Notes under the pieces: generated by a model | What the model was told of the DNA's origin: nothing | Databases searched by the model: none | The model's input: only the letters and a program-made list of their open reading frames with translations | In this document: piece by piece, positions 32,500 through 62,020 of the stretch | Layout: each line of letters opens with the position of its first letter | How positions within the stretch are numbered: position 1 is the stretch's first letter | Translations under genes and position numbers: made by a program | Assembly: GCA_036245805.1 (NCBI GenBank) | Contig: BTRK01000005.1 | Coordinates: forward strand, 5,022,001-5,086,000 | DNA from: Pristionchus mayeri | Taxonomy: Eukaryota; Nematoda; Chromadorea; Rhabditida; Neodiplogasteridae | Direction: 5' to 3' | DNA length: 64,000 nucleotides

Positions 32500-33332
32500 A
32501 TAATGTACCTGCTACGATCCTGCTATAAAATCCTGCTAGAGTACGGGAAAGTATCCAACTAGGAAATAAATACCAGAGTTCTCACTCTTTTCTTGAATGG
32601 GCTGATTGCAGTTCGCCGTAATATACTTCGCTGGCATGGAGTGTGCAATGCAAGTGAATGAAGGCAAGGGAATACATAATAATAATATAAATATAATTGA
32701 ATAAATGATGACGAAAACAATTGAAGGCAAAAGTGAGGAAATCGGTCGAATTGTAGCATTCACAGCATATTTTATCGATGTTAGAATCAGATCTTCATGG
32801 AAGGTATCGGGAATGAGTTGGGTGAGCATTATATCGCCACTTATATTTGAAATTAAAAGAACTGAAAGTAACCCAACAGGGATGAATTTGTGATTCGACG
32901 CGCACTGTATATGAGTGTGTGGACGAGTGAGAGAACGAAAGTGCTAACAACTCCAAAATGTTTCTTTTCGGCCGAACACGATGGACAATATTTTTTTTTT
33001 TTTTTTTGTTTTACATAGTATTCCCCATCGTATGCAGCCAGCATCTATCTGATGGGAAAATAACAATAATTCATTCCTCGTTGGGTAATTGTACATTACA
33101 GGAAAGATGCTGGAGCACCGTCATGAACTTCTCCCCGAATGGTAAACTACGGCCCTCAAGATTCCTTTCTGTCTCACCCCATCCACATTTTTCAGAGTCC
33201 GATGCTTGGATATTTCAAAAAGTTACACTCTCCGTGATTGTAAATAACTTACACCCCCATATTCTTGCCGCATATGGCGTAATTGGATTCGCCGCTTATC
33301 GTATGTTTATTCGAAAATATTACAGTACATAA
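32500..33332 (+). pseudogene. ced-9-like: CED-9/Bcl-2-like locus C, 3' exons only, disrupted
   Basis: Three exons line up with gene A in position and phase. 32500-32550 follows ATTCAG and ends LLEYGK before GTATCC, keeping the BH1 Gly. 32612-32821 follows TTGCAG, holds FAVIYFAGMECAMQVNEG and, further on, GRIVAF...DVRIRSSWKVSGMSW (BH2-like), then GTGAGC. 33102-33332 follows CATTACAG, contains NFSPNGKLRPSRFLSVSPH and ends in a hydrophobic anchor near HILAAYGVIGFAAYRMFI. The middle exon carries a 63-base insertion flanked by GAAGGCAA direct repeats with an in-frame TAA, so the product is broken unless it is spliced out. No 5' exons with a BH4 segment were found upstream. The left arm of the big inverted duplication begins inside its last intron, at 32861. 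Confidence 0.6.
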
Positions 33333-35009: not shown

Positions 35010-35787
35010 TGAAAAAAATGAACATTTCAAGTAATTGAATGTGATCGTAAATTAAAAGATTATTATTTATACCGAAAATTTGGCGTTCTTTTCGGGTCAG
35101 AAGTGAATGAGATCATGACGAATCCTGGGATTAGTGTAGATTGGATACTAGAATAAAAACAAAACAATATGCACGCTAAACAGGCTGATGCCATTGCACA
35201 ATCCGAATTCAGATGGAATGTTTTTTGATAATAGGATTAGTAATATACGATCTGCGACGGCCGTTCATGCAATCACGATCGATATGCGAAAACCAGTTGC
35301 GAAGCAAATACCGAATGACTGACGCACCCACGCGCGTCCTCTCTTTCTCTGTGCTCTCCCGTCAATTCCCGTATCTGCGCGCTCATCCTTTTGCATTCTA
35401 TTTATCTTGTTCTCCGTGTCCGGCCTCTCTCGTTCGATAGAATGGCAGGTCACCAAGCATTAACATTCTTACTTCTACAGTGTTCAAAAATTGGAATCGG
35501 GAGGGAATTTATCCGATCTCTTATTCAACGGTGTTCCGTCGATATTCCCTTTATCGTTGAGTTTTCTTGAGGTCTTCAATACATTCTTATGGGTGCAAGG
35601 TTAAAAAAATGCACAATGACTATTGCACAATACGTGGGTAGGGCGAAAAGGACCGCATATGAGAAAAGGGCGAATAGGACATTAGCAATGGATCGTATCT
35701 CTCTTGGAGAGATCCAGCTGAGAACTTGTAGACAACGCATGCAAAATGAAGAGTGATTGATTTATTTTCAAAGGACAGCGAACTCAT

Positions 35788-37507
35788 ATTTTTATTCCAA
35801 ACGATTCAGGTAAATGCCGTTGCTGATTTCACCATCATCCTCAACGGACAATGCATACATTCCGATATTCCATTGATCAGTTTCAGCAGCGTCGCTGTAA
35901 GCACCGAATTCCACTTTCTTAGATGTATGATGGAGAATCTGCAAATTTCCATTTATGACCGCCTTTATCGTATTTATAGAGTGTAAGCTGTGTTTCAACA
36001 CATTCGGGTGTTTTGGACAACTCAACCAAGCGCATACAAATTGCGTGGATAAGATGGGGGGGGGGGGGGGTTGAGTAAAGTGGGCGCACAATTAAAGAGA
36101 ATTTTCCGTGCTAAAATGAGCGGGATGGAATGTGAAGAATAGGGTGCAACGTACTTAGTGTGTTATGCATAGTGAATTGAAAAGTAGGCTAAAAGTAAAA
36201 AATAATGAAAGCACATACGCGAAGCAGGTTCTCAGCGTCCTTAAGCGACACCTGTCTTTCCCAAGCGAATCCAATTTCTCGGCAATTCTGATTGATCAAT
36301 GCTCGAAGTATTGGGGGCATTTTGATTCCGGAGGGCTTGATGAAATAAGCCGATAGACTATTGGTCATGTTAGCAATATGCAGCAAACAGTTTATAGATT
36401 CTGAAAAGGCTGATTTATCGTAATCCCCTAAATTCGAGCCTTGAAGTATCCGAAAAAATAGAAATTTCATGAATATCCAAAGTAGTCGAGAGAGCCTAAA
36501 TAAATTTGGATATTAATCCACCTTTTTCGCACAGATAGATTGTGCAACTGATTATGTAAGGTACGATATGCCTTATCAAAGCAGTGTAGCTAGGGCTGAA
36601 AAAATAAAAAAAATAACTTATTTAGCTTAAAAAGGAACTGACAAGCATTTTTGGATACACCCGTCGCGTATGTCAATGATATGGACAGATTTCCTGTGAA
36701 GTATATCAATGCAGATATGTATTAAATTTTCATGAACGTGTTTGAGTCTCAATTGGTGAAATAACGTTTTTCGAAAAAGAGCCTTAAAAAATCCGAAAAA
36801 TTTAGAAATTTCCTGAATATCCAAAGTAGTCGAAAGAGCCTAAATATAATAGATTGTGTTATTAATTGCAAAGTGATCTCAAACTAACACAGTGTGAATG
36901 GAACGATCGGGAAAATGTGTTAATTCCGAGCTCTTCCATGGCTGTATTGAACCACCTTTTCCAAGTATGAAACTTAATCCAATGGTCAAAGACAATCAAT
37001 ATTTCCGTGGCTGTGTCTTGGCCTTCTTTCTAAATGTCGAAAAGATGAACATGGGAAAAATATAGTATGAGTTCTCACCTTAGACTTGAACTCCAGATAT
37101 CTAATTACAATAGATCGATTGAATCCGTCTATAACTTCCCTCGTGCGCATGCAGACCTATATGTATTGTGTATACAATTGTATGTTTAATATTGTCGTAA
37201 ATATATTTTCAATATCGCTGTATGAAAGGTGAGGTATATTCTGAAAAAAAAGTAAGATACCTCTCGCAGTCGAGTTACTGTTTTGTAGTCCAGGAATGAA
37301 ATTATTTGACCCGTGCATTTGATCGGAAGTCCACAGAAATGGTGTGGCATCGATTCGGAAAGTTCTATTTAACTCTGAATTAGAAGGAAACATGGAACTT
37401 GATCTCGAGATTCTTATTTGGCGCCTATTTGAAATTACGTCCACCCGCATTCTGGTCGAATCACCCTGGCAAGGAGCCAAATATTTGAATAATGCTTTGG
37501 ATTTCAA
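35788..37507 (-). other. Candidate multi-exon gene, F-box-family-like C-terminal region (left arm)
   Basis: Mirror of 39376-41095. In transcript order the exon-like frames are 37507-37157, about 37045-36860 (continuing after a GTGAG donor and TTTAG acceptor), 36824-36627, 36470-36189 (ending ENLLR before GTATGT) and about 36000-35792 (ending EDDGEISNGIYLNRLE, stop). Here the 36470 frame has an ATG that the right arm lacks. The spacing and the F-box exon nearby suggest a member of an F-box/leucine-rich family, but exon joins are unverified. Confidence 0.35.
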
Positions 37508-37568
37508 TTTTCAGGTCATCCAGGCTCATTTTCAGATGTGTTTCAGGTGGGCTACATAGCTCATCTAA

Positions 37569-38033
37569 TCATCGGCTAACTAGATCACATGGAACGCGTT
37601 CGAAAGTGACCCATTTACAGCCCTTACTATAATCTGGAAGCTTTTTTGCTGGAGGGTTTGTAGGGGTGTGGGAGTGGGGGCGATGGAAGTGGCAACGGGG
37701 CACATGCTCAGCAGACACAAGTCTAGCCTTGGTTCCCTCGGCAAAATTTTCAGGACGATCACAAATATATGTCTGTCCAGTGTCTGTTCGGACGCACATT
37801 TTGTCCTGCGAAAACGAGGCCATCCACTTGCACTTTGCAAACAGGCACAGGTGGCCGTCGGCGGTACGAGTCATTTCATGCATAAAAATAACGTTTGGGC
37901 AAACAAATGAGAAAAATGCCGGAAAGTGGTGTGTGTGCGTCCGTCCGTCCGTCCGTACCGTAACCCGCAAGTAGCGTTGGAGCAGATGTTGTGTCAGACT
38001 CATGATTTCATCGGAGGATGTAGGATCTTCCAC
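37569..38033 (-). other. 154-codon ORF of unknown status (left arm)
   Basis: A Cys/His-bearing frame starting MEDPTSSDEIMSLTQHLLQR. A frame of 102 codons lies opposite it, so coding direction is unclear. The 5' part includes a (CGGA)n run. Mirror copy at 38850-39314. Confidence 0.25.
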
Positions 38034-38198
38034 TCAAAATTTCAAATTATTCCAAAAAAATATTTTCGTGGCTATTAGGTTATCGGCGATGCAGAATCAA
38101 AATGTCGTTGGCAGAATTTAATATAATTTCAATTTGAGTATGTATAAGGCTCTTACTCTAAGCCCCGCCCCTCGTGGTGTAGTGCAAGCCGTCCGCAT

Positions 38199-44575: not shown

Positions 44576-45397
44576 CATAGGTGTCCACGCCGCCGGCGAC
44601 AGGGGGGTGCTGCGCATAGACGCACCGTGCGTCTGTGCGCAAGCATGAATAGGGGGTCATGGTAAAAATCGATGGTAGGTCATTGGTAGGTCAAGACCAA
44701 CTACCGTACCAAATCGATAGTACAGTAACAGTAGATACCGTACATTACTGCCGTAACCTGCGATTATCGCAAGCTATTATTTTTTTTATTAAAAAAAGTC
44801 CTGGTACCGTATGCAATCGATTCTACAGTACCCAAGTAACTACAGTAACCCAGTTCCTTGTGTCAGATCCAGTTCCTTGAGTCAAACATTTTTGTAAAAA
44901 TCCAAAATCGGTTTTAAAATAATTTAAAAGTATCCTAAAGTATAAGTTATTATTGTATGACCATTTTATGACCAATTTTGGATTTTTAGAAAAATGTTTG
45001 AAATATTTAGAAAAATGTTTGACCCAAGGAACTGGGTTACGGTAGTTGCTTGGGTACTGTAGAATCGATTGCGCACGGTACCAGGACTTTTTAAAAATAA
45101 AGTTAGTTTGCGATAATTGGGGGTTACGGTAGTGGTATACGGTATCTTGGAGTACTGTACTATCGATTGGGTACGTCACTTTATTTTTTTGAAAATAAAG
45201 TTTGTTCGCGATAATTGCGGGATACGGTAGTGATATACGGTATCTACTGTTACTGTACTATCGATTGGGTACGTTGTTTTTCTCCCATGACCTACCATCG
45301 ATTTTTACCATGACCCCCTATTCATGCTTGCGCACAGACGCACGGTGCGTATATGCGCAGCACCCTCCCCCCTCGCAGCCATTCGTGGACACCTATG
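44576..45397. mobile_element. hAT-like MITE with 8-bp target duplication
   Basis: The ends CATAGGTGTCCACG and CGTGGACACCTATG are inverted, and the arms continue for more than 100 bases (GGTCATGGTAAAAATCGATG and complement). The direct repeat GTCCTAAC flanks it at 44568-44575 and 45398-45405. An 8-bp duplication with CA...TG ends suits the hAT superfamily. The interior has GTACCGTA/ATCGATTGGGTACG repeats related to 17.5-18.0 kb. It stops 91 bases before the start codon of CED-9-like gene A. Confidence 0.8.
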
Positions 45398-45488
45398 GTC
45401 CTAACGTTGATCCGTCCTACTGGTTTCAACGAAGTTTAAACCATTTTTTGCCCTGGATCAAAATGGCATAAATGCTAGTGTTTGTTAG

Positions 45489-48400
45489 ATGATAAAACAG
45501 TCTCACTGCACAGAATTTCGAGAAGCCCATGGAATTGCGGGGGCGTCCTCTTCGAGTGACTTCCTCTTCGACCTGTGCGCATCGAACTCTGCAGAATTGT
45601 AATCACTGAAGTGCTCTTGAAAGTTTTTTCTAGCACTTCAAAATTTGTTTTATCACTGAAATCACTTGTTGCACTTGTTGCACTGTTACCAGTATGCCCT
45701 CCACTACACCGCCCTGTTTAGATCCTCTAACTATATGAACTTGAGTTTCTCTCTCTACCAACGTATAGAGGTTCATAGTCCAAAATTGGGAATTTGAGTG
45801 AAAAATCATGATTATTAGGTTGATGCAAAAGTCTTGCGGTTTTTTGATATTTTTTCTTCCATCTTCCTTTCAGTTTGACCGATGACCTTCCGTGCTTTGA
45901 ACTATCATAATTCTCTCGTCCCAAATCACGATGACTAATAAACATAGCAATGTTTAGAGGTATGTTTGTACTTTACATACACGCATTTCAATCAATCCGA
46001 TATCGCAATCAACGCAATAAATTATGATAAAGCCAATTAGAATTTATTCTCAAAATTTTGCATTAAATGTATTTTACTGGATATTTGTTGTCAAAATTCA
46101 CGAAACCTGCCCATACTGATGTCTGAGAAGTATTACGTATACCCTTTCAGAAAATATGTTAGAGCTGTCTCTCGATTAAGTTTGGACCGAATTAGATGCT
46201 ATTGAAAATATGCTTTCGATTCTGGTTACATGAAACTTTTTCGGATTTTTTGCATCGAAGACCAAGCATATAGGCTTCGCTATGAGTGCGCTATATTCAT
46301 CCACCAAGAGGCTTTATTCTCAGAAAAAATATTGGCGCCTGCACCTTTCTCGTTTCAGAAAATTTGAATTTCTCATTTTCCAAAAATATGCGAAATGAAC
46401 ATAAAAAATGCAATATGTAGTCATTTACAGATCAATGCATTTCTCAAAAGGATGTAACTTCCGTCATCCATGAGAAAAAGTATGTATAGGGTAAAGATGG
46501 GAGCTTCATATAACCACCAGTAATTGAGCACTCATGCTTCAGAGGAAACAGAATATTGAAAAATGTGTCGTTTTCGATGGATAAATGTTCGCAATTTTAA
46601 CTTTGCCCTGCTCTCCCCTCTCCGATTGGGAAATGCTGATAGGGTGCGCATATGAAAGAGTATGCAAGGCCTCATTAGTAATTAATATACGGAAGGTCAT
46701 CGGTCAAACTGAAAGGAAGATGGAAGACAAAATATCAAAAAACCGCAAGACTTTTGCATCAACCTAATAATCATGATTTTTCACTCAAATTCCCAATTTT
46801 GGACTATGAACCTCTATACGTTGGTGGTGAGAGAAACTCAAGTTCACATAGTTAGAGGATCTAAGCATGGTGGCGTAGTGGAGGGTATACTAGTAACAAT
46901 GTAACAACTCCTAAGTCCCTACTTCGAATCCCGAGGGAGCTGCGATTTGTTTACGTTTTGTCGGTTCACTTTTTGTCACCCCCCCCCCTACGTGTGAGAT
47001 TTTCAAAATACATTTTTAAATAATATTCTACTTGTTTCAGGCGCGAGTCTCCAGAGGTTCCAGAGGGAGCAGAACGTGAACATTCGGAAATGAGGTATAC
47101 GTTGAGTAATCGAATTTTTCAAAATTGAATATCATCGAAGGAACCATCAGACTGTGTGCTATCATATGTTAAGTATTAATTCAAAAGTTAAGAATGAGCA
47201 AAATGATGAGTATTATTTCAGATTGAGGTGTGCATTGCTCGAAGCCCAAGAAGAGCCGGAAGAAGATGCTATGGGATTCGATGAATTTTGTACTGTAAGA
47301 ATCAGTGTGAATGACAATAGGTCGGATGAGAACAGTTGCGGGATGCCGCTTTTGCCGTACCAGGAAATTCATACTACCTAGTGTCGTGCGAATCAATCAA
47401 CATCAGTATTGCTATAATGCAAAATTCATTTTGCATTATAGCAATACTGATGTTGAGGCAATCGATGACTGGATGAATTTAAATGCGAATAATCGAAGCG
47501 ATATTTCCTACCATCAAGTGGTCAGATATTTTATGTATTCGAAAACAATCTTCCGATGTGTTTCTCAATCAAAGATGGTTAATATTTCAGTTTACCCTGG
47601 TACATAATGTTGGGTTCGAGTGTGTGGAACAAATGAGAGAAGGCAATGATAAGGATATCGGTCGGATGGTCGAATTCATTGCAAAGTGTATCGATGAGAG
47701 AATCAGATCGTCATGGAAGGATGCCGGAAGGAGTTGGGTGAGAATTATGGTCAAACTGTTATCAAGTTATGTTATTTAATATTATATTGTAATCATTATA
47801 CGTAGCAGTACATTACAGTAATAGTGTGGGATAGATGAATTGCATGAGTGGATCGCGTTAAGAGTTAGTTTAAGAGACCGGATCGGTAATTCTCGATCAC
47901 CCCCGGACACGAGTCCCCCGGAATGAGAACCGGGCTTCCATACTTTGTGTATGGGTACCCCTTGGCCACTACACTCAACCCGAAAGCGTCTTCTCGTCCC
48001 CGACCCCGTCTCTGGCGCGCTCTCCCAGCAAGCGACCACGAGCGAAGTCCAGCGCTTCTACAATACTCTCTACACGTCCGTTGTCGTCCTCCCTCTTGCC
48101 GTTCCTCCCTCTGCCGAGCCCCTTCCACCCTTCTTATCTGATGAGTGTCGTGATGCTCTTTCCTACCTCAAGAGTGGACATTCCCCTGGTTCTGACAAGG
48201 TCCTTCCTGATATGCTCAGCCTATCACGTGAATTCCTTGCACAGCCATTGGCCGATCTTCTGAACCATCTTGTGGCAGGTGATACTGTCCCCGAAGGCCT
48301 CGTCGAAGCTGTCGTCTCCTTACTGCACAAGAAAGGAGACACTACCAACATCAGCAACTACAGGCCCATTTCCCTCCTGACAGTCACCTTGAAGAGTATC

Positions 48401-51400
48401 ACTCGGGTGATCATGAAAAGAATCGAAGTGTCACTCGATGAGTCAGAGTCCCTCACCCAATGTGGATTCCGCAAGGGGCACTCGACTCTCGACAACTTAC
48501 ACGCCATTAAGCAGCTCGCAGAAAGGACGCATGAAAATAGTATCCCCCTGTATCTTGGTTTCGTCGATTTCACCAAAGCCTTCGATACAGTTGAGTGGAA
48601 TGCCGTCTGGCAGGCTCTCTGGAAGGCAGTAGTGCACCCTACCCTCGTTCACCTTCTTCGGCGCCTCTATGAGTCGTCTTCGACCCTCATCAGAGTGAAC
48701 GAAGATGTGGTCCCCGTGCAAGTGAAGAGAGGAGTACGGCAGGGTGACACTCTGTCCCCACGTCTCTTCAACTCTGTCCTCCGCCTCGCAATGGACGACA
48801 TCGACTGGGAGGACTGCGGACTTCGGATAGATGGAAGACCTCTCTTTCATCTGGAGTACGCCGATGACGTCGCTCTCATTGCCAAGAACCGTCCCGAAAT
48901 GGAGAAGATGCTAAGGAAGCTGGTAGAGGCGTGCTCTCGAGTCGGACTGGAAGTCAACGCTACCAAGACAGTCCTCCTCACATCCTGCACCACCACTCGA
49001 ACACCCATCGTAATCAACAATCAAGTGTTCTGCTTCGCTGATTCAGCCACCTATCTTGGCGGGAAGATCTCTCTCCCCCTTGATCCCTCTGCCGAACTGG
49101 AACACCGAATTCGACTGGGTTGGGCTGCATGGAGTAAGCTTTCTCATCTACTCGCCAGCCGCATTCTCCCCATGAAGACAAATAGACGCCTCTTCGATAG
49201 CTGCGTCAAATCTACCGTACTCTACGGGAGTGAGACGTGGGCTCTGCGATCAAGTGACAAAGAGCGTCTTGACGTCACACTAAGGAAGATGGAACGGAGA
49301 ATGGTCGGAGTGACTCTCAAGGACCGAATGAGGAACGAGAGACTGCGGGAGATCACTGGAGTACGCGACTGGAATAAGGAGGCCCTCAAATGCAAAGCAA
49401 AATGGGCGCTGAAGTTACGGGAGATGCGTGTCAACCACTGGACGCGTGCGACTACCGTATGGACAATCGTGCACGCCCTCAAGGCAATCCCAAGACTCGA
49501 TGGCGTGATGACCTCAGAAGAGCCATTGGACCCCATTGGTGGAGCGCAGCCTATGAAGAATATGGCCCCATCCTCACCTGAGCACTACTGCCTGATGTGA
49601 TAAATAAATAAAATAAATAAACAAAATCATTATACGTAGCAGTACATTACAGTAATAGTGTGGGATAGATGAATTGCCTGAGTGGATCGCGTTAAGAGTT
49701 AGTTTAAGAGACCGGATCGGTAATTCTCGATCACCCCCGGACACGAGTCCCCCGGAATGAGAACCGGGCTTCCATACTTTGTGTATGGGTACCCCTTGGC
49801 CCCTTATTGCACAAACTACACATGATTTCCCGGTTTCACTTTAGAGCTGTGAAATGCAAGGTCCCAAAGTTGAAAAATCGAAAAATCATAAATTTTAAAC
49901 ACGACAAGGTAGCCTCAAAATCTCTTCTGCTTTGCACTTGGGATGACCAATAACCAAAAATGAACCATCCAGATCGATTCTCAATTGATTGTAAAATTAT
50001 ATTTCTATTCGAAAATTTTGCATTTTGACCCATTTCTCCACCATATGAAAAAACGCACGCGCTCACTATGCTTAAAATGTAGCCCGATAAAAACTCTACC
50101 GAACAGTCCATAAGTTGGCCCGATTAATTTTCCCGCTAATGCTCTCCCTGAGCCTCGAATGTTTCGGAGAGTTGCGAAATTGCAGTGTTTTCATTAACAA
50201 TACCTTCAATTAAGACTAGATGAAGCGATTTTAGTATAAAAATGACTTTAAAGGATTAATATATTTAATTTTGCTTAAGAAAGCAGAAATTTCGTTTATT
50301 CACAAAAATCGATATTCGCGAATTCGTATTCATGCATATTTATGCATCTCAAAGCATCATTATCAATTCATCGGAGGCCCAGTACGTGTACGAAGGAAAG
50401 TATGCTCCACCTAGTTTACGAAGATTGTGAAATACGTATCCTTGCATTTCTTCAAGCTTGATTATTTATAGCCAAATTACGAAAAATCGAAGGTTTTGAA
50501 ATTAATTTCTCGTTATATATTTGAGCAAATGAAGTTCCTTCTACCGTGAATCGTCGCTTACAAATGAAAAACGTTAAATTTACATGAAAAAATTGAAATT
50601 TATCCAAAATTCTTAAAATCGATTTTTGCAAACTTCGATTTTCTCAAAATTTTGCATGAGAAAGCTCGGTGTAGAAAAGCTTGAATAATATGAAGATATA
50701 TGCAACGTGTACTACTGTAGTACGTTAGTAAACGTTCAAAAGCATAAGCCAACCAAATAAAGTCAATCTTCCATTATCCTTTCACAAAATTGATTAAAAT
50801 CGAGCAACTGTGAAAATGCAAATTGTAATTGTGCGTTGTATTTTCAGTCACGCATAAATCTATAATATGCGGTTTCACAATAATAATTAACTCGAAAAAT
50901 GATGTGAAATCACACAAGGAATGCAAAATTCCTAATCCTATTTCTCACAGTTTGCTCGATTTTTATCAACTTTGTGAAAGGATAATGGAAGATTGACTTT
51001 ATTTGGTTGGCTTATGTTTTGAACGTTTACTTACGTACTACAGTAGTACACGTTGCATATATCTTCATATTATTCAAGCTTTTCTACACCGAGCTTTCTC
51101 ATGCAAAATTTAATCCTATTTCTCACAGTTTGCTCGATTTTTATCAACTTTGTGAAAGGATAATGGAAGATTGACTTTATTTGGTTGGCTTATGTTTTGA
51201 ACGTTTACTTACGTACTACAGTAGTACACGTTGCATATATCTTCATATTATTCAAGCTTTTCTACACCGAGCTTTCTCATGCAAAATTTTGAGAAAATCG
51301 AAGTTTGCAAAAATCGATTTTAAGAATTTTGGATAAATTCCAATTTTTCATGTAAATTTAACGTTTTTCATTTATAAGCGACGATTCACGGTAGAAGGAA

Positions 51401-52575
51401 CTTCATTTGCTCAAATATATAACGAGAAATTAATTTCAAAACCTTCGATTTTTCGTAATTTGGCTATAAATAATCAAGCTTGAAGAAATGCAAGGATACG
51501 TATTTCACAATCTTCGTAAACTACGTGGAGCATACTTTCCTTCGTACACGTACTGGGCCTCCGATGAATTGATAATGATGCTTCTTGGATGCATAAATAT
51601 GCATGTATACGAATTCGCGAATATCGATTTTTGTGGATAAGCTAAATTTCTGCTTTCATAAGCAAAATTAAATGTATTAATCATTTAAAGTCATTTTTAT
51701 ACTAAAATCGCTTCATCTAGTCTTAATTGAAGGTATTGTTAATGAAAACACTGCAATTTCGCAACTCTCCGAAACATTCGAGGCTCAGGGAGAGCATTAG
51801 CGGGAAAATTAATCGAGCCAACTTATGGAGGGTTCGGTAGAGTTTTCATCGGGCTACATTTTAAGCATAGTGAGCGCGTGCGTTTTTTTCATATGGTGGA
51901 GAAATGGGTCAAAATGCAAAATTTTCGAATAGAAATATAATTTTACAATCAATTGAGAATCGATCTGGATGGTTCATTTTTGGTTATTGGTCATCCCAAG
52001 TGCAAAGCAGAAGAGATTTTGAGGCTACCTTGTCGTGTTTAAAATTTATGATTTTTCGATTTTTCAACTTTGGGACCTTGCATTTCACAGCTCTAAAGTG
52101 AAACCGGGAAATCATGTGTAGTTTGTGCAATAAGGGGCCAAGGGGTACCCATACACAAAGCATGGAAGCCCGGTTCTCATTCCGGGGGACCCGTGTCCGG
52201 GGAGTGCCGGATGTGGTCGAATCTTACCGATCCGATCTCTTAAGATATGTGGTCTGACATATCATTTCATATATTAATAACTTTGAACGGATTTGCTCGA
52301 CTACAGTTGCCAAATAGAGTCTCTGCATCTTCCCGCAGTTAAGTACTAATTTTCAGGCAGAATGCTTCAGGCCCATTCTGAATTTCTCCCCGATCGATCG
52401 CCTTCGGCCTTCTCGCTTCCTCGACGTTTCACCTCATCACTTGGACTGGCGTCCTGCCCCACCGCCTTCTCTCGCTTCCCGAATCTCTTCGATGATTGAT
52501 AGCGCCGATCCCGTGAAAGCGGTTGCCTACGGATTAGCAGGCATTGTTACTTACATTTGGATGATACGCAATTAA
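45489..52575 (+). CDS. ced-9-like: CED-9/Bcl-2-like gene A, six exons, 220 aa
   Basis: Exons: 45489-45598, 47041-47094, 47222-47294, 47458-47517, 47591-47737, 52357-52575; total 663 bases, all phases agree. Domains by residue: BH4-like SDFLFDL (23-29); PEGAEREHSEMR (44-55) and FDEFC (74-78), matching the alpha2-alpha3 region of CED-9; BH1-like SYHQFTLVHNVGFECVEQM (96-114); BH2-like RIRSSWKDAGRSW (136-148); a linker with NFSP..LRPSRFL; and a tail anchor AVAYGLAGIVTYIWMI near 203-218. C. elegans CED-9, as I recall it, has RIRxxWKxxxRSW at BH2. The intron after that Trp is at the classic Bcl-2 family position. The BH1 Gly-Arg is replaced by His-Gln, which could change BH3 binding. ATG 45489 directly follows an in-frame TAG; as that TAG could also be an acceptor, an upstream exon is possible. 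Poly(A) signal AATAAA at 52576. Expected at mitochondria, in apoptosis control. Confidence 0.8.
45640..46925. repeat. Long palindrome with mariner-like ends inside intron 1 of gene A
   Basis: Outer arms about 45640-45815 and 46769-46925 are inverted copies. Inside them, TTAGGTTGATGCAAAAGTCT (about 45815) and its complement (to about 46768) look like mariner ends, and the next 60 bases also pair. The arms thus continue without a break across the presumed mariner border. No transposase. The right side includes a TTCGAATCCC block. Confidence 0.65.
47397..47456. repeat. Perfect 28-bp hairpin touching a splice acceptor
   Basis: 28-base arms 47397-47424 and 47429-47456 with a 4-base loop TTCA, fully complementary (inner part ATTGCTATAATGCAAAA). 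The right arm ends on the A of the AG that precedes exon 4 of gene A. Confidence 0.85.
47791..47967 (+). repeat. 177-bp target-site duplication, left copy
   Basis: Matches 49625-49801 with one visible mismatch (GCATGAG versus GCCTGAG). The two copies bracket the RTE fragment exactly. Confidence 0.85.
47968..49624 (+). mobile_element. 5'-truncated RTE LINE inside intron 5 of gene A
   Basis: RT sequence begins at its 5' edge without endonuclease, ends with AAATA-type repeats (about 49600-49622), and is flanked by a 177-bp duplication. It belongs to the same subfamily as the fragment at 7.6 kb. Confidence 0.88.
47972..49600 (+). pseudogene. RTE reverse transcriptase, truncated ORF
   Basis: The open frame starts with an ATG at 47945 that belongs to the duplicated flank, not to the element. 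Retrotransposon homology begins about 47972 (RKRLLVPDPVSGALS). RT motifs: ISNYRPISLL, VDFTKAFDTV, KRGVRQGDTLSPRLFN, EYADDVALIAK with the YADD. The C-terminal VLYGSETWALRSSDKERL follows. Near 49440-49560 the frame differs from the other copies (WTIVHALKAIPRLDG), so the last 50 codons are probably frameshifted. Endonuclease is missing, so it is dead for autonomous movement. It lies in the same orientation as gene A, within its intron. Confidence 0.85.
49625..49801 (+). repeat. 177-bp target-site duplication, right copy
   Basis: Partner of 47791-47967. Its last part (from about 49690) is also the left end of the foldback element that follows. Confidence 0.85.
49690..52243. mobile_element. 2.5-kb foldback element in intron 5 of gene A
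   Basis: Arms 49690-50870 and about 50950-52243 are inverted copies; the ends are clear at CCGGGCTTCCATACTTTGTG (about 49766) and its complement (about 52160). Near the centre a block of about 170 bases is tandemly doubled (about 50945-51110 and 51113-51285). The frames at 49836-50111 (-) and 51904-52101 (+) are mirror images. No transposase. Confidence 0.8.
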
Positions 52576-52807: not shown

Positions 52808-53860
52808 TCATTTAAATAGAACAACTGCCATGAGTGTTACCAATTGGATACCAGCTGTAACAGCGAACAATATATTCGTGGATACATTATACCATGGATC
52901 ATCGGGACCAGAGGTAAGAATATTCGTGTAGTTAGGATCAATGAACCAATCTACAGCCTCTGCAGGATAGGCAAGGGGCCGCAGCAAGTGTGTTGGACGA
53001 TCGTAGTATCGATTATTGTACACAAACATGAACGATTCCTGGGATATTGTTTTATTTATAAAATTATATTTATGAACTTAGAAAGGTTCACTATTTGAAT
53101 TTGATATTTCGCTCATGCGACGTGATTTTGAAAATATTCAGTATCAGTCGTAAATGCAATAGTTTCAAAATATATGCCATTGACAATTTATATATAATTT
53201 CTCAAAATTTTCAATTAAAATCGAAAGGCGATAAGGAATGTATAGAAATACACCAAAGATTAATTCTCGTTTCGATAAATTCCGTAACGAAATCTGCCAA
53301 TGGTGCGATCTCTTCCATATTTCCCTCGCGAAATTTTTCGATGCTATTAACGCCAACTAGCATGATAGCGAAAACCTGAAATGAGCTGATGTACTTTGCA
53401 ACCCAACGAGAATGGTCCATATATATTTTGTTAGTCAATGTTTTATATGACTAAGACAAATAAGTTGGAATCTAACCAGGCTTTGATAGCAAACGTCGTA
53501 TTCTCTGAATGTGTGCGCACGTGTGAATCGCTTAATCGCCTAAATGTTCTTCAAATTAATTCTGCAAAAACATCGAATGCCACATCAATTACCAAAAATT
53601 ACACAAAAATTAACACTAATAATTTTAATAAAAACAATTAACGACGCAACTATAAATATCTCAAATCTCGCATATCGTCTCCCCAGTGTCTGTGATAAAG
53701 AAGTTCATCAGACTCGCAGATTTCGCAAGCGACTCTGCAATAGATCTTGCATTTCGGGTAATCGCCTATGTTTCGACCGGTCGAGGGAAGAGGGAGTTTG
53801 GGAAATGAAGATACCATTACCCGAATTACGGACTCTATTCACAAAGATCGGTCTCGCCAT
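52808..53860 (-). CDS. ced-9-like: CED-9/Bcl-2-like gene B, divergent, 5' structure unresolved
   Basis: Three exons align with gene A: 53539-53477 (after CATTTAG; AIKRF...DVCYQSL, before GTTAGA), 53375-53254 (after TTTCAG; VFAIMLVGVNSIEKFREGN, then a helix ending FIETRINL), and 53038-52808 (after CCCAG; RPTHLLRPLAYP, then a C-terminal hydrophobic anchor ILFAVTAGIQLVTLMAVVLF). The REGN stretch and both flanking intron positions are shared with A. The BH2 Trp-Lys...Trp segment is missing: after TRINLW the frame reads CISIHSL to a stop, and the only nearby donor is out of phase with the last exon. A possible first exon starts at 53860 (MARPIFVNRVRNSG), but joining it in phase failed. It is either a pseudogene or a strongly altered paralogue. 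It converges on gene A, with stops 232 bases apart. Confidence 0.55.
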
Positions 53861-54100
53861 GCGAATGTTATCATTATGCTATCATAATTGATAGTGTTAT
53901 CTTTAAAGGAGGACTGAAGGCAAAGTTCGACTTTGGACCCATTCATAGCCATGACCTAGCTCCTCTTAACGACTAAAGGCTTCAAAAAATTACATTAATA
54001 TCTCTACTCTCATCAGAGTTATGATTAGTTGGCTGAGTGCCACGGACGCTTGATGGGCCAGGGAAGTGCGCGAATTCAAATATCTTGAAGTTTTGTCAAA
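53861..54100. other. Spacer upstream of gene B
   Basis: No TATA box or other clear signal. Would hold the promoter of gene B if that gene is active. Confidence 0.3.
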
Positions 54101-54103
54101 AAC

Positions 54104-54173
54104 TGGGGGGATCGAACCCGCAACCTTCCGATTACGTGACGGCTGGTCTACCACTAAGCTAACTAAGCTATCC
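54104..54173 (-). tRNA. tRNA-like pseudogene or tRNA-derived SINE head
   Basis: The minus strand has an A-box-like TAGCTTAGTGGTAGA and a perfect B-box GGTTCGATCCC at tRNA spacing. However, the acceptor stem 5' GGATAGC has no 3' partner, and the anticodon arm (CCG...CGG) gives no standard 7-base loop with T33. It probably derives from a tRNA but is not a working one. Confidence 0.4.
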
Positions 54174-54419
54174 TACTGATGTGTGTACGCTTCCTAGATA
54201 TGGATACATAATTTATCTCACCTTATCACTCGATGCTCTTCCTCTGCCCCTTCTTGCACATCCGGAGCGTCGCGCCTGTCATTTATTCCTGTATTTTTCT
54301 GATTTGTCGTTTTTTCCTTACAGTAAGTGTTACATATTACACCAGCCGATCGACTGGCATACTCCGAGAGTTAGCGTTCGTCTTATTCATTTCGGATTCT
54401 TTCTCTCAAAATCCTTTAA

Positions 54420-54658
54420 CATTTATCCCTCCTTCTCTATCGCGCTCTCTCCTTCTCTCTCTCCTGTCTCCTTCTCTCCCTCTATCCATCTCTCCCTCTC
54501 TCTCTCCCTCTCCATCTGCCTCCCCCCTCCTTCTATTCCTCTCGCCGTCTCTCCCTCTTTCCTTCTCTCCCTCTTCCTCCGTCTCTCCCCCCCCCCTGTC
54601 CGTCTCTCCTGCTCTCCCTATCTCTCCCTCTCTTCCTATTTCCCCCTCTCCCTCTCGT
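54420..54658. repeat. CT-rich simple repeat, block 1
   Basis: (CTCTCC/CTCCCT)n low-complexity sequence. It keeps long frames open by composition; these are not proteins. Confidence 0.8.
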
Positions 54659-55064
54659 TTTCGAATGTTCTGGAACATTCTAGACGCTTTGGACCATTTT
54701 CGAACTTTCTGGAACATTCTAGTAGCTTTGGAACATTTTCGAACTTTCTGGAACATTCTAGAAGCTTTGGAACATTTTCGAACTTTCTGGAACATTCTAG
54801 AAGCTTTGGAACGTTTTCGAACTTTCTGGAACATGCAGAAGCTTTTGGAACATTTTCGAACGTTCTGGAACATTCAGAAGCTTTTGGAACATTTTCGAAC
54901 GTTCTGGAACATTCAGAAGTTCTGGAACATTCTAGAAGCTTTAAAACATTTTCGAACTTTCTGGAACATTCAGAAGCTTTTGGAACACTTTCGAATTTTC
55001 TGGAACATTCAGAAGCTTTTGGAACATTTTCAAACTTTCTGGAACATTCTAGAAGCTTTGACCC
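54659..55064. repeat. 39-bp tandem repeat made of heat-shock elements, block 1
   Basis: The unit contains TTCTGGAACATTCTAGAA, then GCTTTGGAACATTTTCGAAC. TTC-nn-GAA-nn-TTC-nn-GAA is a four-module HSF binding site. About ten units, some with TTCAGAAG in place of TTCTAGAAG. Because 39 is a multiple of three, a 13-residue peptide repeat appears in every frame. Confidence 0.8.
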
Positions 55065-56935
55065 ATAGCTAATTATCGATTGGTATACTGTAGTCGTCCT
55101 TTAGATCATAGATCAAAGATCAAAATCATACATCTGACCCACGGAATAAGAGGTGACCCATGGCTAATTATCGATTGGTATACGGTAGTTGCCCCAATGT
55201 TAATTATTGATTGGTAAACGGTAATTCAAAGATCAAAGATCAAAATCATAAATCTGACCCACGGAATAATAGGTGACCCATGGCTAATTATCGATTGGTA
55301 TACGGTAGTTGCCCCAATGTTAATTATTGATTGGTAAACGGTAATTCAAAGATCAAAGATCAAAATCATAAATCTGACCCACGGAATAATAGGTGACCCA
55401 AGGCTAATTATCGATTGGTATACGGTAGTTGCCCCAATGCTAGTTATTGATTGGTATACGGTAATGCAAAGATCAAAGATCAAAATCATAAATCTGGCCC
55501 ACCGAATAAGAGGTGGCCCATGGATAATTATCGATGGGTATACGGTAGTTGCCCAATGCTAATTATTGATTGGTAAACGGTAATTCAAAGATCAAAGATC
55601 AAAATCATAAATCTGACCCACGGAATAATAGGTGACCCATGGCTAATTATCGATTGGTATACGGTAGTTGCCCCAATGTTAATTATTGATTGGTAAACGG
55701 TAATTCAAAGATCAAAGATCAAAATCATAAATCTGACCCACCGAATAAGAGGTGGCCCATGAATAATTATCGATTGGTATACGGTAGTTGCCCAATGCTA
55801 ATTATTGATTGGTAAACGGTAATTCAAAGATCAAAGATCAAAATCATAAATCTGACCCACCGAATAAGAGGTGGCCCATGAATAATTATCGATTGGTATA
55901 CGGTAGTTGCCCAATGCTAATTATTGATTGGTAAACGGTAATTCAAAGATCAAAGATCAAAATCATAAATCTGACCCACGGAATAATAGGTGACCCATGG
56001 CTAATTATCGATTGGCATACGGTAGTTGACCCAATGCTAATTATTGATTGGTATACGGTAACTCAAAGATCAAAGATCAAAATCATAAATCTGACCCACG
56101 GAATAATAGGTGACCCATGGCTAATTATCGATTGGTATACGGTAGTTGCCCCAATGCTAGTTATTGATTGGTATACGGTAATGCAAAGATCAAAGATCAA
56201 AATCATAAATCTGACCCACCGAATAAGAGGTGGCCCATGGATAATTATCGATGGGTATACGGTAGTTGCCCAATGCTAATTATTGATTGGTAAACGGTAA
56301 TTCAAAGATCAAAGATCAAAATCATAAATCTGACCCACCGAATAAGAGGTGGCCCATGGATAATTATCGATGGGTATACGGTAGTTGCCCAATGCTAATT
56401 ATTGATTGGTAAACGGTAATTCAAAGATCAAAGATCAAAATCATAAATCTGACCCACGGAATAATAGGTGACCCATGGCTAATTATCGATTGGCATACGG
56501 TAGTTGACCCAATGCTAATTATTTATTGGTAAACGGTAATTCAAAGATCAAAGATCAAAATCATAAATCTGACCCACTGAATAAGAGGTGACCCATGGCC
56601 AATTATCGATTGGTATACGGTAGTTGACCCAATGCTAATTATTGATTGGTATACGGAAATTCAAAGATCAAAGATCAAAATCATAAATCTGACCCACGGA
56701 ATAATAGGTGACCCATGGCTAATTATCGATTGGCATACGGTAGTTGACCCAATGCTAATTATTGATTGGTATACGGAAATGCAAAGATCAAAGATCAAAA
56801 TCATAAATCTGACCCACGGAATAATAGGTGACCCATGGCTAATTATCGATTGGCATACGGTAGTTGACCCAATGCTAATTATTGATTGGTATACGGTAAT
56901 GCAAAGATCAAAGATCAAAATCATAAATCTGACCC
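55065..56935 (+). repeat. 120-bp tandem repeat (satellite), array 1
   Basis: About 15-16 units. Each unit holds TATCGATTGGTATACGGTAG and the related TTATTGATTGGTATACGGTA, plus AAAGATCAAAGATCAAAATC and CTGACCCACGGAATAATAGG. The unit is thus itself partly dimeric. Confidence 0.9.
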
Positions 56936-57636
56936 TCTCCCTCTCTCCCTCTCTCCTTCTCTCCCTCTCCCACTCTTCCTCTTGTATTCTCTCCCTCTAT
57001 CCATCTCTCCCTCTCTCTCTCCCTCTCCATCTGCCTCCCCCCTCCTCTTCCTCTCGCCGTCTCTCCCTCTTTCCTTCTCTTCCTCTTCCTCCGTCTCTCT
57101 CCCCCCCCCCCCCACCCCCTGTCCGTCTCTCCTTCTCTCCCTCTCTCTCTCATTCTCTCCCTCTCTCATTCTCTCCCTCTCTCATTCTCTCCCTCTCTCC
57201 TTCTCTCCTTCTCTCCCTCTCTCCTTCTCTTCCTCTCTCCTTCTCTCCTTCTCTCCCTCTTCCTCCGTCTCTCCCTCTTTACCCTTTTCTCTCTCTCCCT
57301 CTCTCTCCTTCTCTTCCTCTCTCCTTCTCTCCTCTACCATTCTCTCCCTCTCTCACTCTCTGACTCACTCTCTTTCTTCCCATCTCTCCTCTCTCCTTTT
57401 ATCTCCCTTTTCCCTCCTGCTCTCCCATTCTCTCCCTCTTGTATTCTCTCCCTCTATCCATCTCTCCCTCTCTCCCTCTCTATCTCCCTCTCCATCTGCC
57501 TCCCCCCTGCTTCTCTTCCTTTCGCCGTCTCTCCCTCTTTCCTTCTCTCCCTCTTCCTCCGTCTCTCCCCCCCTGTCCGTCTCTCCTGCTCTCCCTATCT
57601 CTCCCTCTCTTCCTATTTCCCCCTCTCCCTCTCGTT
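56936..57636. repeat. CT-rich simple repeat, block 2
   Basis: As block 1 but longer, including poly(C) runs near 57102. Recurs nearly unchanged at 59540-60254. Confidence 0.85.
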
Positions 57637-58003
57637 TTCGAATGTTCTGGAACATTCTAGACGCTTTGGACCATTTTCGAACTTTCTGGAACATTCTAGA
57701 AGCCTTGGAACATTTTCGAACTTTCTGGAACATTCTAGAAGCTTTGGAACGTTTTCGAACTTTCTGGAACATGCAGAAGCTTTTGGAACATTTTCGAACG
57801 TTCTGTAACATTCAGAAGCTTTTGAAACATTTTCGAACGTTCTGGAACATTCAGAAGCTTTTGGAACATTTTCGAACGTTCTGGAACATTCAGAAGTTCT
57901 GGAACATTCTAGAAGCTTTGGAACATTTTCGAACTTTCTGGAACATTCAGAAGCTTTTGGAACATTTTCAAACTTTCTGGAACATTCTAGAAGCTTTGAC
58001 CCA
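57637..58003. repeat. Heat-shock-element tandem repeat, block 2
   Basis: Same 39-bp unit as block 1, about nine copies, with the same order of variant units as block 3. Confidence 0.8.
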
Positions 58004-59539
58004 GAGCTAATTATCGTTTGGTATACGGTAGTTGACCCAATGCTAATTATTGATTGGTATACGGTAATTCAAAGATCAAAGATCAAAATCATACATCTGA
58101 CTCACGGAATAAGAGGTGACCCATGGCTAATTATCGATTGGTATACGGTAGTTGCCCCAATGTTAATTATTGATTGGTAAACGGTAATTCAAAGATCAAA
58201 GATCAAAATCATAAATCTGACCCACGGAATAATAGGTGACCCATGGCTAATTATCGATTGGTATACGGTAGTTGCCCCAATGTTAATTATTGATTGGTAA
58301 ACGGTAATTCAAAGATCAAAGATCAAAATCATAAATCTGACCCACCGAATAAGAGGTGGCCCATGAATAATTATCGATTGGTATACGGTAGTTGCCCAAT
58401 GCTAATTATTGATTGGTAAACGGTAATTCAAAGATCAAAGATCAAAATCATAAATCTGACCCACCGAATAAGAGGTGGCCCATGAATAATTATCGATTGG
58501 TATACGGTAGTTGCCCAATGCTAATTATTGATTGGTAAACGGTAATTCAAAGATCAAAGATCAAAATCATAAATCTGACCCACGGAATAATAGGTGACCC
58601 ATGGCTAATTATCGATTGGCATACGGTAGTTGACCCAATGCTAATTATTGATTGGTATACGGTAACTCAAAGATCAAAGATCAAAATCATAAATCTGACC
58701 CACGGAATAATAGGTGACCCATGGCTAATTATCGATTGGTATACGGTAGTTGCCCCAATGCTAGTTATTGATTGGTATACGGTAATGCAAAGATCAAAGA
58801 TCAAAATCATAAATCTGACCCACCGAATAAGAGGTGGCCCATGGATAATTATCGATGGGTATACGGTAGTTGCCCAATGCTAATTATTGATTGGTAAACG
58901 GTAATTCAAAGATCAAAGATCAAAATCATAAATCTGACCCACCGAATAAGAGGTGGCCCATGGATAATTATCGATGGGTATACGGTAGTTGCCCAATGCT
59001 AATTATTGATTGGTAAACGGTAATTCAAAGATCAAAGATCAAAATCATAAATCTGACCCACGGAATAATAGGTGACCCATGGCTAATTATCGATTGGCAT
59101 ACGGTAGTTGACCCAATGCTAATTATTTATTGGTAAACGGTAATTCAAAGATCAAAGATCAAAATCATAAATCTGACCCACTGAATAAGAGGTGACCCAT
59201 GGCCAATTATCGATTGGTATACGGTAGTTGACCCAATGCTAATTATTGATTGGTATACGGAAATTCAAAGATCAAAGATCAAAATCATAAATCTGACCCA
59301 CGGAATAATAGGTGACCCATGGCTAATTATCGATTGGCATACGGTAGTTGACCCAATGCTAATTATTGATTGGTATACGGAAATGCAAAGATCAAAGATC
59401 AAAATCATAAATCTGACCCACGGAATAATAGGTGACCCATGGCTAATTATCGATTGGCATACGGTAGTTGACCCAATGCTAATTATTGATTGGTATACGG
59501 TAATGCAAAGATCAAAGATCAAAATCATAAATCTGACCC
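58004..59539 (+). repeat. 120-bp tandem repeat, array 2
   Basis: About 12-13 units. 58638-59538 repeats 56034-56934 at a shift of 2604 bases. Confidence 0.9.
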
Positions 59540-60254
59540 TCTCCCTCTCTCCCTCTCTCCTTCTCTCCCTCTCCCACTCTCCCTCTTGTATTCTCTCCCT
59601 CTATCCATCTCTCCCTCTCTCTCTCCCTCTCCATCTGCCTCCCCCCTCCTCTTCCTCTCGCCGTCTCTCCCTCTTTCCTTCTCTTCCTCTTCCTCCGTCT
59701 CTCTCCCCCCCCCCCACCCCCTGTCCGTCTCTCCTTCTCTCCCTCTCTCTCTCATTCTCTCCCTCTCTCATTCTCTCCCTCTCTCATTCTCTCCCTCTCT
59801 CATTCTCTCCCTCTCTCCTTCTCTCCTTCTCTCCCTCTCTCCTTCTCTTCCTCTCTCCTTCTCTCCTTCTCTCCCTCTTCCTCCGTCTCTCCCTCTTTAC
59901 CCTTTTCTCTCTCTCCCTCTCTCTCCTTCTCTTCCTCTCTCCTTCTCTCCTCTACCATTCTCTCCCTCTCTCACTCTCTGACTCACTCTCTTTCTTCCCA
60001 TCTCTCCTCTCTCCTTTTATCTCCCTTTTCCCTCCTGCTCTCCCATTCTCTCCCTCTTGTATTCTCTCCCTCTATCCATCTCTCCCTCTCTCCCTCTCTA
60101 TCTCCCTCTCCATCTGCCTCCCCCCTGCTTCTCTTCCTTTCGCCGTCTCTCCCTCTTTCCTTCTCTCCCTCTTCCTCCGTCTCTCCCCCCCTGTCCGTCT
60201 CTCCTGCTCTCCCTATCTCTCCCTCTCTTCCTATTTCCCCCTCTCCCTCTCGTT
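59540..60254. repeat. CT-rich simple repeat, block 3
   Basis: Copy of block 2 at a shift growing to 2618 bases because of small length changes. Confidence 0.85.
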
Positions 60255-60621
60255 TTCGAATGTTCTGGAACATTCTAGACGCTTTGGACCATTTTCGAAC
60301 TTTCTGGAACATTCTAGAAGCCTTGGAACATTTTCGAACTTTCTGGAACATTCTAGAAGCTTTGGAACGTTTTCGAACTTTCTGGAACATGCAGAAGCTT
60401 TTGGAACATTTTCGAACGTTCTGTAACATTCAGAAGCTTTTGAAACATTTTCGAACGTTCTGGAACATTCAGAAGCTTTTGGAACATTTTCGAACGTTCT
60501 GGAACATTCAGAAGTTCTGGAACATTCTAGAAGCTTTGGAACATTTTCGAACTTTCTGGAACATTCAGAAGCTTTTGGAACATTTTCAAACTTTCTGGAA
60601 CATTCTAGAAGCTTTGACCCA
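60255..60621. repeat. Heat-shock-element tandem repeat, block 3
   Basis: Copy of block 2 at a shift of 2618 bases. Confidence 0.8.
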
Positions 60622-62020
60622 GAGCTAATTATCGATTGGTATACGGTAGTTGACCCAATGCTAATTATTGATTGGTATACGGTAATTCAAAGATCAAAGA
60701 TCAAAATCATACATCTGACTCACGGAATAAGAGGTGACCCATGGCTAATTATCGATTGGTATACGGTAGTTGCCCCAATGTTAATTATTGATTGGTAAAC
60801 GGTAATTCAAAGATCAAAGATCAAAATCATAAATCTGACCCACGGAATAATAGGTGACCCATGGCTAATTATCGATTGGTATACGGTAGTTGCTCCAATG
60901 TTAATTATTGATTGGTAAACGGTAATTCAAAGATCAAAGATCAAAATCATAAATCTGACCCACCGAATAAGAGGTGACCCATGGCCAATTATAGATTGGT
61001 ATACGCTAGTTGCCCCAATGATAATAATTGATTGGTATACGGTAATTCAAAGATCAAAGATAAAAATCACAAATCTGACCCACGGAATAATAGGTGACCC
61101 ATGGCTAATTATCGATTGGCATACGGTAGTTGACCCAATGCTAATTATTGATTGGTATACGGTAATGCAAAGATCAAAGATCAAAATCATAAATCTGACC
61201 CACCGAATAAGAGGTGGCCCATGGATAATTGTCGATTGGTATATCGTAGTTGCCCCAATGCTAATTATTGATTGGTATACGGTAATGCAAAGATCAAAGA
61301 TCAAAATCATAAATCTGACCCACGGAATAATAGGTGACCCATGGCTAATTATCGATTGGTATACGGTAGTTGACCCAATGCTAATTATTGATTGGTATAC
61401 GGTAATTCAAAGATCAAAGATCAAAATCATAAATCTGACCCACGGAATAATAGGTGACCCATGGCTAATTATCGATTGGCATACGGTAGTTGACCCAATG
61501 CTAATTATTGATTGGTATACGGTAACTCAAAGATCAAAGATCAAAATCATAAATCTGACCCACGGAATAATAGGTGACCCATGGCTAATTATCGATTGGT
61601 ATACGGTAGTTGCCCCAATGCTAATTATTGATTGGTATACGGTAACTCAAAGATCAAAGATCAAAATCATAAATCTGACCCACGGAATAATAGGTGACCC
61701 ATGGCTAATTATCGATTGGCATACGGTAGTTGACCCAATGCTAATTATTGATTGGTATACGGAAATGCAAAGATCAAAGATCAAAATCATAAATCTGACC
61801 CACCGAATATGAGGTGGCCCATGAATAATTATCGATTGGTATACGGTAGTTGCCCCAATGCTAATTATTGATTGGTATACGGAAATGCAAAGATCAAAGA
61901 TCAAAATCATAAATCTGACCCACCGAATATGAGGTGGCCCATGGATAATTATCGATTGGTATACGGTAGTTGCCCCAATGCTAATTATTGATTGGTATAC
62001 GGTAATGCAAAGATCAAAGA
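60622..62020 (+). repeat. 120-bp tandem repeat, array 3
   Basis: About 11-12 units, ending abruptly at AAAGATTTAAAATTTTTCC. The long + strand frame 61018-61812 is the 40-codon translation of the unit and is not taken as a gene. Confidence 0.9.

What the first reader, a model, noticed from the sequence alone, without database searches (positions are those of the whole stretch)
45489..52575. Complete CED-9/Bcl-2-like gene hidden in six short exons
The exons sum to 663 bases in perfect phase and give BH4-, BH1- and BH2-like segments and a tail anchor, with an intron directly after the BH2 Trp as in vertebrate Bcl-2 genes. BH1 has His-Gln instead of Gly-Arg, so this may be a diverged or repurposed apoptosis regulator.
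Basis: partly seen in the sequence, partly recalled or inferred. Interest (0 to 1): 0.88.

Follow-up and report, generated by a model that had tools for sequence, protein, structure and literature searches.

The report
Diverged CED-9 copy in Pristionchus mayeri
Besides its regular gene for CED-9, a protein known in C. elegans to hold back cell suicide, the worm Pristionchus mayeri carries altered copies on five other large contigs, and this window holds one whose predicted protein lacks parts that the death signal EGL-1 would likely need to switch it off.

Summary
The finding is largely real. The window lies in Pristionchus mayeri. Exons 2, 4, 5 and 6 match CED-9 relatives; exon 3 fits by place, splice sites and length. 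A profile of 27 CED-9 proteins scores the exon 2-6 protein at E=1.4e-17.

Two corrections. Exon 4 ends at 47520, not 47517. Exon 1 (45489-45598), the supposed BH4, is unsupported: no profile score and nothing added to the total. 'Complete' and 'BH4-like' are therefore not shown.

It is not the worm's own CED-9, which is an annotated gene on contig C3 beside an SDHC-like gene. It belongs to an expansion with members on C1, C2, C4, C5 and C6. In A (this gene), C1 and C2 exon 3 is 30 bp shorter than canonical, at the place of helix alpha3. BH1 Gly169-Arg170 is His-Gln here and Glu-Gln in C2; C2 thus carries the kind of change (Gly to Glu) of a C. elegans gain-of-function ced-9 allele.

The likely product is a BH4-less, groove-altered, tail-anchored CED-9-like protein that EGL-1 would not switch. 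A decaying duplicate is the main rival. Expression could not be tested.

The parts
45489..45598 (+).
   Evidence: No profile score; 36 of 1859 window candidates fit as well; adds nothing to the protein score; missing from the partial sister copy on C5
47041..47094 (+). Exon 2 (54 bp), start of alpha2/BH3-like region
   Evidence: Profile without this gene E=6.5e-8 in the window; same 54-bp length in C1, C2, C3, C4, C6
47222..47294 (+). Exon 3 (73 bp); 30 bp shorter than in canonical ced-9, at the place of helix alpha3
   Evidence: 73 bp in A, C1, C2; 103 bp in C3; gap at CED-9 131-140
47458..47520 (+). Exon 4 (63 bp, corrected end), alpha4 and start of BH1 (ISYHQV); TTGAG acceptor directly after a 28-bp perfect inverted repeat at 47397-47424/47429-47456
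   Evidence: 0 of 2000 shuffles as good; 63 bp in C1 and C3; inverted repeat read
47591..47737 (+). Exon 5 (147 bp), rest of BH1 to BH2 (RIRSSWKDAGRSW)
   Evidence: Profile without this gene E=1e-18; 147 bp in C1, C2, C3
52357..52575 (+). Exon 6 with LRPSRFLDVSP motif and hydrophobic tail, stop included
   Evidence: Profile of C1, C2 and C4 exon 6, E=1.5e-6
45675..46907 (.). Repeat element with 219-bp inverted ends inside intron 1
   Evidence: Inverted ends 94.5% identical
47738..52356 (+). Intron 5, swollen by mobile DNA: 557-codon ORF that looks like reverse transcriptase (47927-49600, by eye) and a foldback element (49732-50817/51118-52206)
   Evidence: ORF list; foldback arms 97.4% identical
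32672..33332 (+). Remnant B: exon 5 with an in-frame stop and exon 6 (about 33102-33332) with motif and tail
   Evidence: tblastn, sequence; four copies of its exon 5 on C5
43559..43789 (-). Remnant B exon 6 only, in the inverted duplicate
   Evidence: tblastn and self-comparison
52808..54274 (-). Remnant C: exon 2 (54274-54221), exon 5 (53390-53262), tail-like exon (about 53038-52808, by eye); no consistent full splice model found
   Evidence: profile E=3.5e-6 for exon 2 and 4.8e-7 for exon 5

Best explanation
Exons 2-6 at 47041-52575 encode a diverged duplicate of CED-9, the nematode Bcl-2 protein, whose product, if made, would likely sit in a membrane by its tail and would no longer be switched by EGL-1. 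Shown: sequence homology to CED-9, exon structure shared with copies on other contigs, an open frame of 184 codons from exon 2 on, a 10-codon shortening where CED-9 has helix alpha3, His-Gln in place of the BH1 Gly169-Arg170 pair, and no recognisable BH4 exon. Inferred: with alpha3, BH1 and BH4 altered or gone, the BH3-binding groove would not hold EGL-1 in the usual way, and the CED-4 contact at CED-9 E74-P76 would be missing while Arg211 is kept. Most likely it acts, or acted until recently, as a partial CED-9 that competes with or damps the canonical protein.
For: CED-9 profile without paralogs: 66.6 bits, E=1.4e-17; best of the 3887 scored shuffles (5000 made) 14.4 bits. First three PDB rows are CED-9. 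Exon-wise profiles. Paralog-only profile finds CED-9 at 1.8e-26. Shared exon lengths. alpha3 at CED-9 128-139 in a model and gap at 131-140 in A, C1, C2. G169 invariant in 27 CED-9s. Under neutral drift at 0.7 substitutions per codon about 0.3% of 400 simulated genes lack a stop; omega on its branch 0.33, like the other copies.
Against: No expression or splice-junction data. omega is not clearly below 1 (p=0.099). No BH4 exon; the exon 4 acceptor is weak (TTGAG) and sits beside a hairpin; introns hold mobile DNA. Remnants B and C and copy C4 are damaged. No annotated protein matched copy A (157 candidates, none at E<=1). Only 8 of 15 aligned positions that are invariant in CED-9 are kept. EGL-1 insensitivity is inferred only.
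Confidence: 0.5

Rival explanations
1. A decaying duplicate: the gene worked for much of its history but is now dead or dying, its frame still open because the loss is recent.
For: Remnants B (stop in exon 5) and C in the same window, C4 with a stop in exon 0 and mobile DNA between exons 3 and 5, no BH4 exon found on C5, intron mobile DNA, weak exon 4 acceptor. At 0.2 neutral substitutions per codon 21% of 400 simulated genes stay open.
Against: 184 open codons and five exons with usable splice sites after about one substitution per codon on its branch; exon 6 motif conserved with C1, C2, C4 and B.
Confidence: 0.38
2. A working full-length CED-9 type inhibitor whose BH4 is exon 1, or an undetected upstream exon.
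For: Exon 1 ends in the right phase and beats all but 25 of 5000 shuffles in fixed register; a CED-9-like tail is kept.
Against: Exon 1 has no profile score, its fixed-register score is negative where a true copy scores about 93.5, 36 of 1859 window candidates do as well; alpha3 shortening and BH1 changes stand whatever the N-terminus.
Confidence: 0.1
3. A chance assembly of open segments with no relation to Bcl-2.
Against: and the matching exon structure of relatives on other contigs.
Confidence: 0.01

Closest known systems
Canonical P. mayeri CED-9 (PMAYCL1PPCAC_12121, contig C3)
   Same: Exon order and phases; exons 2, 4 and 5 of 54, 63 and 147 bp; BH2 Trp followed by an intron; hydrophobic tail
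   Different: Has the 103-bp exon 3 with alpha3, BH4, BH1 SFGRM and an SDHC-like neighbour; A lacks BH4 and alpha3, has SYHQV and the LRPSR motif
C. elegans CED-9 (P0007; PDB 1ohu, 2a5y, 1ty4)
   Same: Alignable from before BH1 to BH2 and through exon 2
   Different: 8 of 15 aligned invariant positions kept; G169-R170 replaced by His-Gln; E74-P76 region absent
C. elegans ced-9 gain-of-function allele (Gly to Glu in CED-9; n1950, position 169 recalled)
   Same: C2 has Glu and A has His at the position of G169
   Different: A point mutation in one gene there; here natural copies that also have a shortened exon 3
Second CED-9 of P. entomophagus (P0006)
   Same: Extra Bcl-2 gene in the same genus
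   Different: Keeps the alpha3 region and TYGRM; groups with its own canonical copy (84%), so probably a separate duplication
Multiple BCL-2 genes of clade I and III nematodes (PMC7456325)
   Same: Bcl-2 expansion in nematodes
   Different: Reported only in clades I and III (section 6); P. mayeri is in Rhabditina/Diplogasteromorpha, clade V by recall

Membership tests
Bcl-2 family, CED-9 branch | Sequence profile match to CED-9 | tested here: met
   E=1.4e-17 with a profile of 27 CED-9s; CED-9 first in PDB by single sequence at 0.0049
Bcl-2 family, CED-9 branch | Pfam PF00452 above its cut-off | tested here: not met
   No report with exon 1; 14.3 bits against a cut-off of 31.4 for the 168-residue form
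Bcl-2 family, CED-9 branch | BH2 (RIRxxWxxxxRSW) | tested here: met
   RIRSSWKDAGRSW; exon 5 profile E=1e-18; alignment
Bcl-2 family, CED-9 branch | BH1 with Gly-Arg | tested here: not met
   SYHQVFTLVHNVGF; G169 and F177, invariant in 27 CED-9s, are His and Asn
Bcl-2 family, CED-9 branch | BH4 helix | tested here: not met
   Exon 1 unscored; no BH4 exon in the window
Bcl-2 family, CED-9 branch | Helix alpha3 of the groove | tested here: not met
   10 residues shorter between alpha2 and alpha4; alpha3 from a model of C. elegans CED-9; A itself was not modelled
Bcl-2 family, CED-9 branch | C-terminal hydrophobic tail | tested here: met
   AVAYGLAGIVTYIWMI before the end, read directly; no predictor was run
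Bcl-2 family, CED-9 branch | Bcl-2 fold | not tested
   The spliced protein was not eligible for the folding tool
Bcl-2 family, CED-9 branch | Controls cell death through CED-4 and EGL-1 | not testable with these tools
   No binding or expression data
ced-9 orthologue | Directly downstream of SDHC/mev-1 | tested here: not met
   Found at C3 (PF01127 9.7e-13); the genes next to A in the window are other ced-9 relatives and repeats, though no family search of all window ORFs was run

The most novel reading that the evidence does not exclude
P. mayeri has evolved a family of CED-9 proteins, scattered over five contigs, that are blind to EGL-1: alpha3 removed, BH1 Gly169 turned to Glu (C2) or His (A) and Arg170 to Gln, with a new conserved tail motif. 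They are natural counterparts of the C. elegans ced-9 gain-of-function allele and act as fixed death blockers or dominant decoys beside the switchable canonical CED-9.
Probability: 0.2. Interest if true: 0.78.

Novelty: new variant of a known kind. Interest (0 to 1): 0.52.

Why it matters
C. elegans controls programmed cell death with one Bcl-2 protein, and the survey of 89 nematode taxa read here found extra copies only in clades I and III. A family of copies with a shortened groove and altered BH1 in a Pristionchus species would show that the CED-9 switch has been duplicated and modified in the same large group as C. elegans, and that surveys resting on PF00452 can miss such genes (this one at least). 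It would also offer a natural test of which CED-9 parts are needed for EGL-1 release, CED-4 binding and the pro-death role of CED-9.

Tried and rejected
Tried without result: PF00452 search of the whole genome (not completed). A CED-9 piece against the whole genome found only C1 at E=0.65, so the six-frame first look is insensitive and copy counts are lower bounds. Protein database with copy A (157 candidates, none at E<=1) and with the paralog profile A4 (1596 candidates, none at E<=0.1; canonical CED-9s did not come back either, so this absence is weak). A mixed profile, A1, returned 32 proteins at E<=0.01. Literature searches for ced-9 + Pristionchus + apoptosis, ced-9/nematode/Bcl-2/paralog/gene family expansion, 'Pristionchus mayeri' + genome, and Pristionchus + Bcl-2 showed no title on Pristionchus CED-9 copies; only listings were seen apart from the papers cited. 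G169E + CED-9 gave 0 papers.

Two weak rows, C6:12129167 (E=0.12) and C1:18761263 (E=1.23), lie in long ORFs and were dropped as unrelated, by eye. C1's exon 6 start is doubtful: its first 24 or so residues match many dispersed places. C1's exon 3 needs a GC donor and a TTGAG acceptor, so A and C2 are the firmer cases of the short exon. The C6 exon 5 start used broke the frame; an AG a few bases upstream reads in frame by eye. The aligner puts C6's gap elsewhere (138-148) than that of A, C1 and C2. The tree is weakly resolved (C6 falls with canonical copies at 92%; other nodes among paralogs at 58-60%), so a single origin of the short exon 3 is not proven. The omega test used 5 copies and 134 codon columns with long branches. 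The BH4 profile contains the P. mayeri copies that it finds, so their E-values there are by construction.
Full report
Where the window is. It is C5:5022001-5086000 of a 290.8-Mb genome in 73 contigs; contigs C1-C6 are 39.7-57.3 Mb long. Protein P0001, PMAYCL1PPCAC_12121 of Pristionchus mayeri, lies on a contig of 46,541,087 bases, exactly the length of contig C3 here, and equals my model of the C3 gene except for four extra residues at one splice join. The species is therefore taken as Pristionchus mayeri, a diplogastrid nematode.

The observation. The six exons add to 663 bases and read through. Against the PDB the spliced protein gives 8 rows up to E=10; the first three are CED-9 (E=0.0049, 0.0077, 0.029). 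Pfam gives nothing with exon 1 included and PF00452 at E=0.063 for the 168-residue form. A profile of 27 CED-9 proteins, none a P. mayeri paralog, gives 66.6 bits for exons 2-6 (E=1.4e-17 for 1e5 sequences); of 5000 shuffles, 3887 were scored and the best reached 14.4 bits. Exon profiles that leave this gene out find exon 2, exon 5 and exon 6 in the 64-kb six-frame translation at 6.5e-8, 1e-18 and 1.5e-6. Exon 4 did not pass E=1 at its own place, but none of 2000 shuffles equals it. Exon 3 was not scored.

Corrections. Exon 4 ends ..GQV in C1..EQV in C2 and ..GRM in C3; the matching end here is 47520 (GTG|GTCAGA), which gives an ungapped fit to CED-9 BH1. Exon 1 fails. The BH4 exon is strongly conserved in C1, C2, C3, C4 and C6 (where those copies are part of the profile). 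In fixed register it scores -3.0 against about 93.5 for a true copy; only 25 of 5000 of its shuffles reach that, but 36 of 1859 open candidate exons in this window do, and in the 4 kb upstream of exon 2 it ranks second of 57. Searches with BH4-bearing proteins list BH4 exons on C1, C2, C3, C4 and C6 (four places) and none on C5. A partial sister copy at C5:5.4045-5.4069 Mb, 97.5-98.9% identical, lacks 45329-46008, which includes exon 1, and stops matching just after exon 2.

The regular ced-9. The C3 gene has seven exons (30/74/54/103/63/147/195), PF00452 at 2.7e-10, and PDB CED-9 at 1e-30. Just upstream on the same strand are ORFs that together give PF01127, the SDHC family, at 9.7e-13. From memory, mev-1 (SDHC) precedes ced-9 in an operon of C. 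elegans. The window gene is therefore not the orthologue.

The family. Genome searches found relatives at C1:6.22 Mb, C2:30.65 Mb, C4:30.05 Mb, C6:5.3-5.5 Mb (four places), and on C5 the window gene A, four copies of remnant B exon 5 (one of them in the window), further exon 6 copies, and remnant C. These are lower bounds. C2 is complete in my model: 30/74/54/73/54/147/255, GT/AG at each join. C4 has a stop in exon 0 and mobile-looking DNA between exons 3 and 5, with exon 4 not recognised. B has a stop in exon 5. A profile of paralogs only (C2, C1, A, C4, C6) finds CED-9 at 1.8e-26.

What has changed. Exon 3 is 73 bp in A, C1 and C2 and 70 bp in C6, against 103 bp in C3. In a predicted model of C. 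elegans CED-9, made from 27 database proteins, helix alpha3 is 128-139 (mean pLDDT 93-94 over 121-140), and A, C1 and C2 align with a gap at 131-140. G169 is invariant in the 27 proteins: A has His, C2 Glu, C1 keeps Gly; Arg170 is Gln in these three. PMC6294797 (passages read) describes the ced-9 gain-of-function mutation as a glycine to glutamate change (printed as n1920 in that sentence; n1950 and position 169 are recalled). PMC2585808 (passages) says n1950 blocks somatic deaths. [quoted passage not shown] A lacks the first three with its N-terminus, keeps Arg at 211 and has Ser at 212. C1, C2 and C6 keep the WEDP segment. PMC7456325 (a figure legend) describes the groove as formed by alpha3 and alpha4. 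That A would not be switched by EGL-1 is inferred from these, not shown. A, B, C1, C2 and C4 share variants of a motif, in A LRPSRFLDVSP, between BH2 and the tail, which is not seen in the C3 protein.

Alive or dying. From exon 2 to the stop there are 184 open codons. In simulations of 400 genes each, without indels, about 0.3% lack a stop after 0.7 neutral substitutions per codon, 2% after 0.5 and 21% after 0.2. Long-term constraint is therefore likely, but recent loss cannot be excluded. The branch omega is 0.33, not different from the other copies (p=0.69) and not clearly below 1 (p=0.099). Against function stand the missing BH4, mobile DNA in the introns and the TTGAG acceptor of exon 4 beside a hairpin. 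The annotated canonical protein reads across a TTGAG acceptor at exon 3, so this alone does not disqualify it.

Comparison with what is known. Young et al. (PMC7456325; outline with abstract, passages, sections 6, 11 and 14 read) report multiple BCL-2 genes only in clades I and III, using PF00452 at E<1e-4 on inferred proteomes; the main text does not mention Pristionchus. Here C1 and C2 reach 7.6e-7 and 5.3e-6 but stay below the Pfam cut-off, and A reaches 0.063, so A at least would be missed. P. entomophagus has its own second CED-9, which keeps the alpha3 region and groups with its canonical copy (84%). The P. mayeri set looks like a separate, more diverged expansion; its single origin is not resolved by the tree.

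Noticed in passing
32860-38198 and 44036-38685: Inverted duplication of about 5.35 kb, 99.3% identical, with about 490 bases between the arms; its edge falls between exons 5 and 6 of remnant B. Could be recent or an assembly effect.
   Followed up: partly
C6:5307165, 5394415, 5501197, 5519828 (L019-L022): Four closely similar ced-9 relatives with BH4 exons within about 0.2 Mb; exons 0-5 modelled in one, last exon not found.
   Followed up: partly
P0006, P. entomophagus: A second CED-9 gene, annotated as partial, in another Pristionchus species.
   Followed up: partly
1824-4772 and 18283-21108: ORFs of 982 and 941 codons that look like non-LTR retrotransposon proteins by eye.
   Followed up: no
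54200-62000: Long repeated stretches open in several frames (LEHS/FGTFSNF-like and DWYTVVDPMLII-like repeats) with near-identical ORFs at 56.6-58 and 59.2-60.6 kb.
   Followed up: no
about 30371-30873: Run of 500 N, probably an assembly gap, some 2 kb upstream of remnant B.
   Followed up: no
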